64,000 bases of DNA from Streptomyces sp. NBC_01283 (GTDB lineage Bacteria; Actinomycetota; Actinomycetes; Streptomycetales; Streptomycetaceae): contig NZ_CP108430.1 in assembly GCF_041435335.1 (NCBI RefSeq), positions 9,272,001 to 9,336,000 on the forward strand, in the 5' to 3' direction. Below, in pieces: positions 3,936 to 39,192 of this stretch (positions within the stretch are counted from its first letter, which is position 1; the number at the start of each line of letters is the position of its first letter). Below the pieces are notes generated by a model. That model had not been told where the DNA came from. It was given only the letters and a program-made list of their open reading frames with translations, and did no database searches. The position numbers were made by a program, and so were the translations under genes.

Positions 3936-4706
3936 TCAGACAGCCACGCCGCCGTCGATCTGGAACGTCGTGCCGGTGATGTACGCGGCCCGGTCCGAAA
4001 GCAGGAACGAGACCAGGTCGGCCACCTCGTGCGGCTCACCGAACCGGCCCAGCGGAATGCGCTGGCGGAACTGCTCCCGCAGGTCGCCCGGCAGCTCCAT
4101 GACCGGGTCGGTCGCGACGAAGCCGGGCACGACCACGTTCGCCCGGATCCCGTACCGGCCGACCTCGCGGGCCAGGGACTTGGTGAACCCGATGATCCCG
4201 GCCTTGGACGCGGCGTAGTTGGTCTGTCCGGCGTTGCCGTACAGACCGGCGATGGAGGACATCGTCACGATCGCACCGCGCCGGCGCTCGATCATTCCGT
4301 TGATGACGGTCCGGCAGACGTAGTACGTCCCGTCGAGGTTGACGCGCTGGACGTCGCTCCAGTCGTCGTCCTCCATCGCCGCCAGCGGACCGTCACGCAG
4401 CACGGCAGCCGAGGTGACCACCGCGGAGACCGGCCCGAGATTCCGCTCGATGCCGTCGATGAGTTCCTCCACCGCGAGGCTGTCGCCGACATCGGTCCGC
4501 CGCACATACGTGCGCCGGCCCAGCGCGCCGATCTCCTTCTCCAGGCTCTCCGCGGCGGCCGTGTCGGAGGCGTAGCACACCGCCACGTCGAAGCCGTCCT
4601 CGGCGAGTCGCAGCGCCACGGCGCGGCCGATTCCGCGGGAGCCGCCCGCCACCAGCGCCACCGGGGCGCCCTGCGGTGTCCCGGCCGGGTCGGGTGCGGT
4701 GCTCAT
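3936..4706 (-). CDS. FabG-like 3-oxoacyl-ACP reductase (SDR family)
   Basis: This is a classical short-chain dehydrogenase/reductase of 256 residues. It shows the dinucleotide loop AGGSRGIG at residues 20-27 and the catalytic set Asn123, Ser150/151, Tyr164 and Lys168 (YAASK). It should reduce a beta-ketoacyl thioester with NADPH. Its ATG overlaps the stop of the last PKS gene by 4 nt (4703-4706), so it is made together with the assembly line. Two roles are possible and not exclusive. It could reduce the beta-ketone left by the KR-less second PKS module, giving the hydroxyl needed for a depsipeptide ring. It could also reduce the KAS III product on the way to an alkyl-2-enoyl-CoA for CCR. The usual NNAG motif is replaced by TSAAV. 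Confidence 0.92.
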   Translation of the reverse strand: MSTAPDPAGTPQGAPVALVAGGSRGIGRAVALRLAEDGFDVAVCYASDTAAAESLEKEIGALGRRTYVRRTDVGDSLAVEELIDGIERNLGPVSAVVTSAAVLRDGPLAAMEDDDWSDVQRVNLDGTYYVCRTVINGMIERRRGAIVTMSSIAGLYGNAGQTNYAASKAGIIGFTKSLAREVGRYGIRANVVVPGFVATDPVMELPGDLREQFRQRIPLGRFGEPHEVADLVSFLLSDRAAYITGTTFQIDGGVAV

Positions 4707-38800: not shown

Positions 38801-39192
38801 ACGGCGTCGTCGGGGACGGCAACATGCTGCCCCTGCGCGTCATGCTCAATCTGCTCGGCGTGCCCGCCAAGACGCTGACCCTGCCGGGACTGGACGTGAC
38901 ACCGCTGGACGTGCGGGTCGGCGACGTGACACCGCTCCCCGAGCTGATCACCGCCATCGAGCCGCACAACCTCGACCTCTATCTGGTGGCCCGCGACGTC
39001 GAGGGCGAACTGCACGGCCTGTGGGTGTACTCGCCGGACTACATCGCGCCGCCCGTCATGGGCGCACTGGTCCGCCAGTGGCCCCGCGTACTCGAACTGG
39101 TCGCACACCACCCCGAGTTGACGGTGTCCCAACTGCGCGAGCGGTTGCGCGCCGAGCAGGACGACACCTCCGGCACGGACAGCGACCGCTGA
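29869..39192 (+). CDS. NRPS C-A(Gly-like)-PCP-C-A(Val-type)-PCP-E-C, no thioesterase
   Basis: This 3107-residue protein carries two modules plus a terminal C domain. C1 has HHIVADLW near 169, A1 its phosphate loop near 645, and PCP1 Ser near 1037 (GGHSLLA). C2 has HHIAADG near 1219, A2 its loop near 1709, and PCP2 Ser near 2095 in GGDSIQA, the form found before epimerases. E has HHFAIDG near 2284 and the last C HHILVDH near 2779. By eye the A1 pocket reads DILQLCMIYK, closest to glycine codes. A2 reads DAYFMGGTFK, close to the valine code DAFWIGGTFK. The prediction is a Gly-D-Val (or similar) extension of the serine-derived chain from the left arm. Release must use the terminal C domain, a free amine or alcohol, or an outside enzyme. 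ATG 29869 has AGGAG upstream and matches NRPS N-termini. Confidence 0.95.
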   Translation: MTDIDLTSLTPEQKRALLAERLQRKSAQQPPVRERRFSASFPQQRMWFLDRLNPGSAAYNIPAAVRMHGPLDLEIWRRSLAEIVRRHESLRTTFEEADGEPVQVVHPTGELEMTVEACEHLHGTEGEEGVKDLARREFARPFDLGTGPLMRMKFLRLAPDEHVLLLTMHHIVADLWSTSVLFGELVALYQSYLTGTEATLPKLTVQYADYAAWQRKQLAGPGFAAELDYWRTTLDGAAPILELPTDRPRPAVLGTTGGSRPFQLPASVMDGVRDLSRRTGTTPFMTLLAAYVALLHRYSRQEDVVVGVPVANRGQSQVEQLIGYFVNTLAIRNDASGNPTFTELLGRVRSAALGAFAHQELPFERLVEELRPERDLSRSPLFQVSFVYQNIPVPEFGVAGLRLELMDVASTTARFDLELQVFEQDDRLGGWFEYNTDLFDAATVDRMGNHLKVLLDNVLRDPDQPILDIALLTETEQLAQHRERTDTRHEWPDELLTHQRIEQQAVLRPDAEAVHCQGRTLTYAQLDASANQLARRLRSHGVARDVMVGVCLERSLDMVVAVLAVLKAGGAYVPVDPGLPKDRITFMIEDAELPVLITQSSVAPGLPQTAAATLCVDELRQELAAESAEPLGAPVDGADLAYVIYTSGSTGRPKGVQLPHRALRNLFWAMKQWPGIDAGDSLIAVTTLSFDIATLELLLPLVEGARVVLATREVATDGKLLAAEMAATGATMMQATPSTWRMLLDAGWQGRPGLRGLICGEALPPDVARRLLDSGVELWNMYGPSETTIYSLGTRIVDETITIGGPIANTEVHILDPEGRPVPSGVPGELCIGGSGLARGYINRPELTAQQFVRNPFPSDLADRLYRTGDLVRRRVDGTIDYLGRLDHQVKLRGYRIELGEIESVLMRQDQVKDSVVVVREDQPGNQRLVAYAVPAASAGADDELRRRLRSALAGKLPDYMVPSAFVFLDALPLTPSGKTDRGALPAPDGQETRTAAAYIAPRNAEEEALCDLFAEVLAVPAVGIDDGFFALGGHSLLATRLVARIRSTLGVELPVRALFEKQSVAELAELVRQGSGDARPALVRATRPDPLPLSFAQRRLWFLHQIEGPSPTYNLPVVLSLNGALDVDCLRAALADVVARHEALRTVFPDTGSPACQLILEPGQARPELPVTEVAEGGLDDAVANAVRHSFDLTREIPLHAELFTVGPDAHVLAVVVHHIAADGWSLAPLRHDLAAAYRARRAGHAPSWEPLPVQYADYALWQRQYLGEPDDPDSTWTRQLDYWRGALEGLPERIALPVDRPHPAEASHAGDTVTFQWDADLHEGLARLARSCDVSMFMVLDAALAVLLSRLGAGQDIPIGVANAGRDDQATENLIGFFANTLVLRTRISHQQTFRQLLTAVRERTLDALAHQDIPFESLVDSLRPSRTMSHHPLVQVMLSWQSVADETLDLPGIEASPLVMSTGTARMDLVLLLHERLTSDGAAGGIEGGFEYNADVFDPETVRTMLGRLRQVVLAMITDPDQPVGGVDLLTPAERHRVLEEWNGTGAKEPTAALTELFEAQCARTPDAVAISCGDERLTYRELSRTTDRLAARLRALGVGADGAEDAVCLLMERSVRVPVAILAVLKAGGVYVPLDPRYPESRMRLIMEELGADVLLVDGDGPAHPAVDGLRVLDVTTELAAADTAAEPGTLTPPSDPDRLAYIMFTSGSTGRPKGVAVTHRNVASLAADHTWRGANHTRVLMHAPTAFDASTYELWVPLLSGAEVVVAPAGELDPDVLLGIIRERGVTSAFFTAALFNLLVEYDATALSGMREVMAGGEALSPPVVAKALAAWPRTVLTNGYGPTETTTFAVLHSMSELTDGTVPIGTPMDDTRAYVLDERLRPVPVGVPGELYLAGAGLARGYFAKPGLTAQRFVACPYGAAGERMYRSGDLVRWRADGTIEYLGRTDDQVKIRGFRIEPGEIENALGAHQAVADAAVVVHDKASGGKDLVGYVVLADGAAAEPAQLRSFVAERLPQYMVPVAVMVLDAFPVTTNGKLDRRALPAPDLGAGSASRAARTPVEEILVAVFADVLGLPEVGAEAGFFDLGGDSIQATQLVAQSRTAGLVFTVRDVFTHQTAAGIAQVARPADEEAAVGVADIGTGSIAPLPILERQRQLGGSAVGFDLSATVGLPLDIDEDRLVATLQAVLDQHDALRTRLVTEPAGQWSLHAAEPGTPRIADVLHRVDIGGLDDADAHRLISQETTAAKRRLDPAAGAMLQPVWFDAGPGRPGRLLLAVHHFAIDGVSWRILLSDIAVAWEAVSAGREPVLAPVTTSLRGWAERVATGSAVIRHRAELPAWQDILRDAEPLVTGELDRERDVTGTEGRLSVTLSAEDCAPLFAQVPAVFRRGIQDVLLTAFGLAAGQWRARRDGSAAAGTGPVVLDVESHGRHEHLVEGTDLSRTVGWFTSVHPVRLEAAALPWHHVTDAGDELAAAVARTGEDLRAIPDNGLGFGLLRYLDPQTAPLLAAPARPQVLFNYLGRVPVTDEERPWLPLREDTASAPAGDRPLSHPLEINAVTQDGPEGPRLVANWSWATSLLGEDEVRELADAWFDALRALTRCADGVENGTVKLPRRQDAPAAAIGAADLLNAPIPKADRSDGTGLSFGQLEFLLQPVGPNHAHHAVITAFRVRGELDAAALRRALDDLVRRHDILRTRYVQRGSATQQFADGRPQWQLDTIELRGYQGQAQREQLHALLTEETKKTFRIEDGNLVRGLLVRLADQEHALVLVAHHILVDHWGFLVVFDELAKLYEAHAAGRRPQLPEVMVQHLDYAAWEQGLLASGALDEHVEHWRTELDGAARTLDFEAPHHQLDDFIEGFSHSVVVGADVMSAVKEAARSEGVTLFMMLMSAFHVLLHSYSGATDIAVSHPLAGRERPETESMAGPFINIILNRSRMSDDPTFHELVQQVLHGELDAYSHQNVPVRALVHDGVVGDGNMLPLRVMLNLLGVPAKTLTLPGLDVTPLDVRVGDVTPLPELITAIEPHNLDLYLVARDVEGELHGLWVYSPDYIAPPVMGALVRQWPRVLELVAHHPELTVSQLRERLRAEQDDTSGTDSDR

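What the first reader, a model, noticed from the sequence alone, without database searches (positions are those of the whole stretch)
4703..39192. FAAL-started PKS-NRPS predicted to build a vinylogous serine lipopeptide
Gene order gives a clear chain: activated fatty acid, reduced methylmalonyl-type extension, second extension with an unusual extender, serine, malonyl extension with KR and DH, then Gly-like and D-Val-type residues. Ser plus a reduced and dehydrated C2 unit yields 4-amino-5-hydroxy-2-pentenoate or, after loss of the hydroxyl, 4-amino-2,4-pentadienoate. That unit defines the rakicidin, BE-43547 and vinylamycin lipodepsipeptides. The Ser code (DVWHFSLIDK) and domain calls are read by eye; the product class is inference.
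Basis: partly seen in the sequence, partly recalled or inferred. Interest (0 to 1): 0.78.

Follow-up and report, generated by a model that had tools for sequence, protein, structure and literature searches.

The report
Cryptic vinylamycin-type lipodepsipeptide gene cluster
This Streptomyces DNA holds a complete but uncharacterised assembly line related to those for rakicidin and vinylamycin, in which a missing reduction step on the big enzyme appears to be done by a small separate enzyme encoded next door.

Summary
A FAAL-started PKS-NRPS runs through the stated interval in the stated order; the Ser, Gly-like and Val-like A-domain codes and the E domain hold up. It belongs to the APDA (4-amino-2,4-pentadienoate) lipodepsipeptide kind: the rare KR-DH order of RakEF follows the Ser module. 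It is not a rakicidin, BE-43547 or vinylamycin cluster proper: module 2 has no KR, the last module has an E domain, and the line ends in a C domain. Komaki et al. 2016 already listed KR-less relatives (14 of 18 'vinylamycin-related' clusters), so the architecture is published. The papers searched assign them no product.

Leaving aside two BE-43547-like clusters, all 16 without a module-2 KR carry a dedicated FabG and an E domain. None of the 7 others has that FabG; none of 6 testable has E. FabG persists in three clusters without a CCR, and its nearest solved relative, by a small margin, is the trans-acting ketoreductase SiaM. Best reading: FabG replaces the module-2 KR in trans. The tree shows one origin, so the link is not independently repeated. 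The extender is probably ethylmalonyl-CoA.

The parts
17063..25963 (-). PKS1: FAAL (24065-25672), ACP (23684-23983), KS (22502-23626), AT (21080-22045, FASH motif), DH (20084-20953), ER (18359-19273), KR (17594-18328, LDD motif), ACP (17279-17518): loads a fatty acid and adds one fully reduced, probably methylmalonyl-derived unit
13776..17066 (-). PKS2: KS (15837-16964), AT (14427-15392, SAGHS motif), ACP (13932-14171); no KR; probably ethylmalonyl extender
   Evidence: ATG at 17066 overlaps the PKS1 stop
10453..13779 (-). NRPS1: C (12355-13689, HHxxxDR), A (10840-12309, Ser code DVWHFSLID), PCP (10555-10809)
4703..10456 (-). PKS3: KS (9263-10402), AT (7907-8806, HAFH, malonyl), KR (6302-6961), DH (5411-6298, after the KR, HxxxD variant of HxxxG), PCP-like ACP (4877-5116): turns Ser into a vinylogous unit
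3936..4706 (-). FabG-type ketoreductase, start overlaps the PKS3 stop by 4 nt; proposed trans-acting KR for module 2
3093..3887 (-). type II thioesterase
   Evidence: PF00975
2072..3046 (-). FabH-type ketosynthase III (accessory; in 4 of the 12 other group-A clusters, 77-89%, within the DNA fetched)
675..1901 (-). SCP2-type thiolase-like protein (accessory)
1..945 (-). acyl-CoA synthetase, continues beyond the window (608 aa in L025:4094-5920)
26107..27642 (-). crotonyl-CoA carboxylase/reductase (probable true start at residue 65, near 27450); supplies ethylmalonyl-CoA
   Evidence: G047 and G184 align from residue 65
28600..29319 (+). membrane-type protein of unknown function, found in 3 of 22 relatives (60-84%)
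29869..39192 (+). NRPS2: C (29977-31308), A (31354-32823, Gly-like DILQLCMIY), PCP, C (33127-34473), A (34519-36018, Val-like DAYFMGGTF), PCP, E (36313-37668), terminal C (37759-39153, HHILVDH)
   Evidence: start
39265..40455 (+). cytochrome P450, in 13 of 13 group-A clusters
40493..41959 (+). MFS exporter

Best explanation
The cluster makes a macrocyclic lipodepsipeptide of the APDA kind. FAAL loads a fatty acid (shown by family; substrate unknown). PKS1 adds one fully reduced, methyl-branched unit. PKS2 adds an ethylmalonyl-derived unit supplied by the clustered CCR and leaves a beta-ketone. The free-standing FabG, translated with PKS3, reduces that ketone in trans on the PKS2 ACP (inferred). 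Ser is added, and PKS3 adds malonate, reduces and dehydrates it to a vinylogous serine unit, probably losing the Ser hydroxyl as well to give 4-amino-2,4-pentadienoate (inferred from rakicidin). A Gly-like residue and a D-Val-like residue follow, and the terminal C domain closes the ring onto the 3-hydroxyl made by FabG (inferred; no TE domain is present), giving a 15-membered ring as in rakicidin.
For: Domain order and codes. KR-DH order as in RakEF, for which its authors name enediyne PKSs as the only exception among some 300 actinomycete PKS genes; APDA derives from acetate and Ser by 13C feeding of rakicidin D (PMC5073741 passages). FabG: 16 of 16 A and A' clusters (72-100% identity in 13, 62-64% in 3) against 0 of 7 B and C clusters at 55% or more. 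FabG is present without a CCR hit in 3 of 16. It overlaps the upstream megasynthase gene by 4 nt in 11 of 13 group-A clusters. The 16 FabGs form one clade (96/94) with the same close pairs within group A as the PKS3 tree. Ser-Tyr-Lys and Asn present and LRD motif in 16 of 16. Nearest solved chain is SiaM, a trans-acting KR working on modules of a PKS (PMC4046962 passages). The CCR scores 766-778 bits against five crotonyl-type chains, 495 against an octenoyl enzyme, 239 against AntE. SAGHS-type m2 AT motif (SPGHS in G772) and CCR coincide in 12 of 12 determinable group-A clusters and in 0 of 10 others. Terminal C domain in 22 of 22 clusters with a complete end, with or without E.
Against: The tree puts the 16 clusters in one group (87/89), so KR absence, FabG and E count as one event: the correlation is not replicated independently. 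In A' (3 of 16) the module before m2 shows KS, ER and ACP motifs but no AT or DH motif, so lack of an m1 hydroxyl is shown only for group A (12 of 13; G1040 has only a fragment of PKS1). SiaM leads the solved list by a small margin (212.9 against 205.1 bits for the next, a plain 3-oxoacyl-ACP reductase). Two other chains named crotonyl-type score low against the CCR (263 and 243 bits). Group C (2 of 23) also lacks m2 KR and has no FabG, so KR loss alone does not require it. The DH motif G is D or E in 7 of 13 group-A clusters including the window, G in the other 6 and in 10 of 10 outside group A, so a second dehydration is not assured. The Gly-type pocket differs at two positions in 12 of 13 group-A clusters. 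The AGH-motif/ethylmalonyl link is recalled; one search found no such motif in the review searched. No biochemical evidence exists here.
Confidence: 0.52

Rival explanations
1. The module-2 ketone is kept. FabG (with CCR and, in some clusters, FabH) builds an alkylmalonyl extender, and the P450 hydroxylates the lipid to give the ester oxygen or another decoration.
For: FabG, CCR and P450 occur together in 12 of 13 group-A clusters (CCR undeterminable in G1007); FabH (77-100%) in 5 of 13. BE-43547-like clusters G101 and G969 also lack KR in m2.
Against: FabG persists without CCR and P450 hits in G925, G906, G886. The CCR is closest to crotonyl-type enzymes, whose substrate should need no dedicated FabG (recalled), and FabH is not found in 8 of 13 group-A clusters within the DNA fetched.
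Confidence: 0.19
2. The Ser hydroxyl is not eliminated but is the nucleophile for the terminal C domain, giving a 12-membered ring of 4-amino-5-hydroxy-2-pentenoate, Gly-like residue and D-Val, with a beta-keto or beta-hydroxy lipid tail, resembling the thalassospiramide ring.
For: No lipid hydroxyl is made in cis in the window. The E domain is found only with the KR-less lines, and the terminal C motif is HHxxxDH in 12 of 13 group-A clusters against HHxxxDN in 6 of 6 testable B and C clusters. Thalassospiramides have a 12-membered ring with an alpha,beta-unsaturated carbonyl (abstract of PMC4350077 in a listing).
Against: PKS3 and the Ser module are homologous throughout to APDA-type lines, and FabG offers a lipid hydroxyl. 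No sequence comparison with the thalassospiramide genes was made.
Confidence: 0.12
3. The product is linear: the terminal C domain or TEII releases a free acid or amide, and no ring forms.
For: No TE domain; a hydrolysing terminal C cannot be excluded from sequence.
Against: The terminal C domain is kept in 22 of 22 complete clusters, including vinylamycin-type and BE-43547-like ones; the named compounds are described as cyclolipodepsipeptides.
Confidence: 0.1

Closest known systems
KR-less 'vinylamycin-related' clusters of Komaki et al. 2016 (PMC5075396 Fig. 4b; e.g. Streptomyces sp. CNQ-509, S. halstedii, S. davawensis, S. vitaminophilus, MspMP-M5)
   Same: No KR in m2 (14 of 18), m5/m6 NRPS on the complementary strand (8 of 18), Val-type last residue; PKS2 homologues named for these five species or strains at 67-83% identity
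   Different: No difference of kind found. The main text holds no mention of FabG, crotonyl or P450 (word searches); the figures are not held
Rakicidin clusters (rakAB, C, D, EF, G, H)
   Same: Starter loading, two PKS extensions, Ser, KR-DH PKS, Gly, last residue
   Different: The RakC-like P0041 has KR; last residue Asn, N-methylated Gly; no FabG or CCR in the gene table read for DSW705 or in the parts of the MWW064 table shown
Vinylamycin-type clusters with m2 KR (here G545, G816)
   Same: Same order, Val-like code DAYFWGVTF, terminal C
   Different: KR in m2; no E, FabG, CCR or P450 hit
BE-43547-type clusters (here G101, G969, so named by their Gly-Ser-Gly order, compare)
   Same: Ser, KR-DH PKS, Gly, terminal C; no KR in m2
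   Different: Extra Gly module before Ser, m1 with KR only, methyltransferase-sized gap in the last A domain, no E, no FabG
SiaM of SIA7248 biosynthesis
   Same: FabG-like free KR; nearest solved chain by a small margin; LRD here, IRD there
   Different: SiaM works iteratively on several modules of a PKS; here one KR-less module is proposed

Membership tests
APDA (APD-CLD) assembly lines | Acyl-activating loading domain followed by two PKS modules | tested here: met
APDA (APD-CLD) assembly lines | Ser-specific C-A-PCP followed by a malonyl PKS with KR then DH | tested here: met
   order compared with RakEF text
APDA (APD-CLD) assembly lines | Gly module then a last amino acid module | tested here: met
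   Gly-like variant code and Val-like code; Gly itself is unsure, two pocket positions differ
APDA (APD-CLD) assembly lines | Hydroxyl on the lipid part made by an in-line KR for ring closure | tested here: not met
   m2 has no KR and m1 is fully reducing; a free FabG is the candidate substitute. BE-43547-like lines also lack m2 KR but have KR-only m1
APDA (APD-CLD) assembly lines | Product contains 4-amino-2,4-pentadienoate in a depsipeptide ring | not testable with these tools
   needs chemistry
Vinylamycin cluster proper | KR in m2 | tested here: not met
   AT-ACP gap 256 bp against 1759-1882 bp in 5 KR clusters
Vinylamycin cluster proper | Last module takes Val | tested here: met
   DAYFMGGTF; an E domain is also present, not found in KR clusters G545, G816, G851, G777
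Rakicidin cluster | Asn last module and Asn oxygenase | tested here: not met
   Val-like code. No oxygenase of that kind next to the line; one TauD-family gene lies at 62623-63582, about 21 kb beyond the MFS gene
Trans-acting ketoreductase (SiaM-like) | Free SDR with Ser-Tyr-Lys encoded with a modular PKS that lacks a KR | tested here: met
Trans-acting ketoreductase (SiaM-like) | Reduces beta-ketoacyl-ACP of the module | not testable with these tools
   needs an assay
Thalassospiramide-like 12-membered ring | Ring containing an undehydrated Ser-derived 4-amino-5-hydroxy-2-pentenoate | not tested
   only abstracts seen in a listing

The most novel reading that the evidence does not exclude
In one large branch of this family with no product found, the in-line KR of module 2 (no LDD motif in 5 of 5 clusters that have it) is replaced by a free FabG with an LRD motif acting in trans. 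On the same branch the last residue became D by an added E domain, and the C domain that takes the m2 chain reads HHxxxDR instead of HHxxxDG. The ester would then join an inverted 3-hydroxyl to an inverted C-terminal residue: a stereochemically mirrored-ester version of the vinylamycin ring, with a 2-ethyl branch in the window's subgroup. (That LDD-type motifs tell the hydroxyl configuration is recalled.)
Probability: 0.28. Interest if true: 0.65.

Novelty: new member of a known kind. Interest (0 to 1): 0.48.

Why it matters
Members of the APDA depsipeptides are reported as hypoxia-selective cytotoxins, and two bind eEF1A1 cysteines (passages of PMC12916061, PMC12843137, PMC13198255). A KR-less branch has been listed since 2016 without a product that I could find. 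A single-gene test (fabG deletion) would show how that branch gets its ring hydroxyl and would give a cheap genome marker for a distinct chemotype. It would also be a further case of a free ketoreductase standing in for a domain of a modular PKS.

Tried and rejected
Extender as a long alkylmalonyl from FabH/thiolase/ACS: not taken as the core explanation, because FabH is found in only 4 of the 12 other group-A clusters and thiolase and ACS (80% or more) in 2 of 12, within the DNA fetched (G184 has a 47% ACS fragment about 19 kb from its CCR), and the CCR is closest to crotonyl-type enzymes. DH-motif change as a mark of a different product: rejected, since it varies within group A. Independent repeated KR losses: tested, not found (one change). 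Plasmid copies: none in 72,556 records at 1e-50. Phylum sample: only the window's own genome in 396. A carrier protein of the LysW kind in the right-hand neighbour cluster: not found by a C-terminal motif scan of the window. Terminal C: the nearest solved chain is 8z0q 'special condensation domain in NRPS'; no paper holding that code or 8z0r/8z0s was found in the library. Meanings of the FASH and SAGHS motifs and of E, C and KR type motifs are recalled; YASH and HAFH are given.

Rows dropped: of the 21 positive genomes, four with only weak hits (36-37%; G810, G813, G828, G835) and a second weak place in G844 were not fetched. One search hid accessory-gene hits under 35% identity. L013 (30%) was not used. 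G1040 has only a fragment of PKS1 in the line; G680's contig ends in NRPS2; G1007's contig starts 1.7 kb before FAAL. The FabG tree carries the tool's warning about long outside branches.

Relatives were linked to strain names only by equal contig lengths between (G184 = CNQ-509, G1040 = MspMP-M5, G772 = Wenjunlia vitaminophila): an inference.

Papers: PMC5075396 abstract and outline, section 13 part 1 (17), section 16 (81), word searches; PMC5073741 passages; PMC12916061 outline and passages; PMC12843137, PMC13198255, PMC4046962, PMC6164871 passages; all others search listings only.

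Full report
Observation. The window is C1:89038-153037, minus strand, of a 9.59 Mb, 5-contig genome. Pfam and NCBIfam confirm five megasynthase genes and their domains, with positions. In biosynthetic order: FAAL-ACP-KS-AT-DH-ER-KR-ACP; KS-AT-ACP; C-A(Ser)-PCP; KS-AT-KR-DH-ACP; C-A-PCP-C-A-PCP-E-C. The NRPS2 gene probably starts near 29869, not 29599.

Relatives. A scan of genome contigs with PKS3 gave S. filipinensis and S. alfalfae at 80-82% and one weak 30% match that was not used. 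With the DH-ACP part of PKS3 (535 aa, E <= 1e-60), hits were in 4 of 392 genus genomes, 3 of 394 class genomes, 21 of 394 family genomes and 1 of 396 phylum genomes; each count includes the window's own genome, and the samples overlap. I fetched 22 relatives and mapped the window's domains on all 23 clusters by tblastn.

Four architectures came out. Group A (13: window, S. filipinensis, S. alfalfae, G1040, G848, G047, G184, G844, G818, G932, G770, G772, G1007): m2 without KR, FabG, P450, E and terminal C; CCR in 12, undeterminable in G1007. Group A' (3: G925, G906, G886): m2 without KR, FabG, E, terminal C, no CCR hit, no FAAL in front of the line, last code DAATVAAVC. Group B (5: G816, G680, G545, G851, G777): KR in m2, no such FabG, no E and a terminal C in 4 of 4 testable. 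Group C (2: G101, G969): BE-43547-like, KR-only m1, no m2 KR, extra Gly module, no FabG, no E, terminal C. The m2 AT-to-ACP gap is 241-280 bp in A, 304-346 in A', 526-562 in C and 1759-1882 in B.

What replaces the missing KR. In rakicidin the ring is 15-membered and includes a hydroxylated fatty acid. Group A makes no such hydroxyl in cis: m1 is fully reducing (12 of 13; G1040 has only a fragment of PKS1) and m2 has no KR. FabG is the candidate. It occurs in 16 of 16 A and A' clusters and, at 55% identity or more, in 0 of 7 B and C clusters (G851 and G777 have a 37% FabG-like gene more than 8 kb upstream of FAAL, on the other strand). Its start overlaps the stop of the preceding megasynthase gene by 4 nt in 11 of 13 group-A clusters, not in G047, G184 or A'. 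It stays in A' and in G772 although it lies behind NRPS2 there. It has Ser-Tyr-Lys, Asn and an LRD motif in 16 of 16. The nearest solved chain is SiaM at 212.9 bits, the next a plain 3-oxoacyl-ACP reductase at 205.1. SiaM is described as a trans-acting KR acting on different modules of a PKS (passages of PMC4046962). The 16 FabGs form one clade against nine own-genome paralogues and three other hits (96/94, with a long-branch warning). Within group A its close pairs match the PKS3 tree; within A' they do not.

Limits of that correlation. In the PKS3 tree (1199 columns) A + A' are one group at 87/89, so KR absence with FabG and E is one event; independent pairs number 1. The case is co-retention through divergence and rearrangement, not repeated gain. 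Group C shows that a KR-less m2 can exist without FabG, where m1 has a KR only. In A' the module before m2 has KS, ER and ACP motifs but no AT or DH motif that a simple scan finds, so it is open whether A' also lacks an m1 hydroxyl.

Extender. The CCR scores 766-778 bits against five crotonyl-type chains, 495 against an octenoyl enzyme (4a0s) and 239 against AntE; two other crotonyl-named chains score 263 and 243. The genome has two further distinct CCRs above the family cut-off. The m2 AT motif is SAGHS in 12 of 13 group-A clusters (SPGHS in G772), TSSHS or TASHS in A' and 4 of 5 B, and malonyl HAFH in C. TSSHS is called probably methylmalonyl by Komaki et al.. Ethylmalonyl for SAGHS is my inference.

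Other co-varying traits. The C domain that takes the m2 chain reads HHxxxDR in 16 of 16 A and A' and HHxxxDG in 7 of 7 others. E domain: 16 of 16 against 0 of 6 testable. In-line m2 KRs of group B lack an LDD motif in 5 of 5. The Gly-type code is altered (DILQ[LF]CMIY) in 12 of 13 group-A clusters; G772 and 9 of the other 10 clusters read DILQLGMIW, G886 DILQLGMVW.

Release. No TE domain is present; a terminal C domain with HHxxxD is kept in all 22 clusters whose end is on the contig. I infer ring closure by it, since the named compounds are cyclolipodepsipeptides.

What is known. Komaki et al. 2016 found 18 vinylamycin-related clusters, 14 without KR in m2 and 8 with m5/m6 on the complementary strand (section 13 part 1). 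Protein names tie group A to five of their listed species or strains (CNQ-509, S. halstedii, S. davaonensis, vitaminophila, MspMP-M5). Word searches of the main text find no FabG, oxoacyl, crotonyl or P450; E is in the abbreviation list, so it may be drawn in a figure that is not held. In the rows shown by searches I saw no paper that assigns a product to the KR-less clusters, but these are capped listings, and papers not held, such as Villadsen et al. 2017 (seen only as a reference), may do so.

Verdict. The trans-FabG proposal is new to me and directly testable.

Noticed in passing
window 1-64000 (C1:89038-170822 and its mirror): The whole window lies in a terminal inverted repeat of the chromosome: the copy at the other end is 100% identical out to about C1:170823, so the cluster is present twice.
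   Followed up: yes
window 41985-63582: A separate-looking cluster follows: acyltransferase 3, split transketolase pair, dapdiamide-synthase-like ATP-grasp, aldo/keto reductase, a desaturase-fold enzyme matching the arginine hydroxylase model NF041365 below its cut-off, class V and class III aminotransferases, FemAB-like and Asp/Asn hydroxylase-like proteins, TauD. Part of it adjoins the same lipopeptide cluster in S. filipinensis; in S. alfalfae the stretch fetched ends at the MFS gene, so it could not be checked there.
   Followed up: partly
L025:6864-7922 and 8116-8862 (left of the window): AfsA-type gamma-butyrolactone gene and a TetR regulator next to the cluster; AfsA is also beside it in S. 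filipinensis and S. alfalfae: a likely signal switch.
   Followed up: partly
C1:79606-80337 (L125): A 55% FabG paralogue in the same terminal repeat, near two KS genes at C1:72959 and 74269 that look like a type II pair.
   Followed up: no
G925, G906, G886 clusters (L102-L110, L121): A' branch with a modular PKS start instead of FAAL, a methyltransferase-sized gap in the Gly A domain, an irregular module before m2 (no AT or DH motif found) and a DAATVAAVC last code; it may be the Tyr group of Komaki et al., but with E and FabG.
   Followed up: partly
window 5411-6298: The PKS3 DH has D or E in place of the motif G (HxxxGxxxxP) in 7 of 13 group-A clusters, G in 16 of 23 overall; effect unknown.
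   Followed up: no
P450 position in group A: The P450 sits after NRPS2 at 78-90% identity in 7 group-A relatives and between FabG and TEII at 62-67% in G848, G818, G770, G772 and G932, suggesting two P450 types.
   Followed up: no
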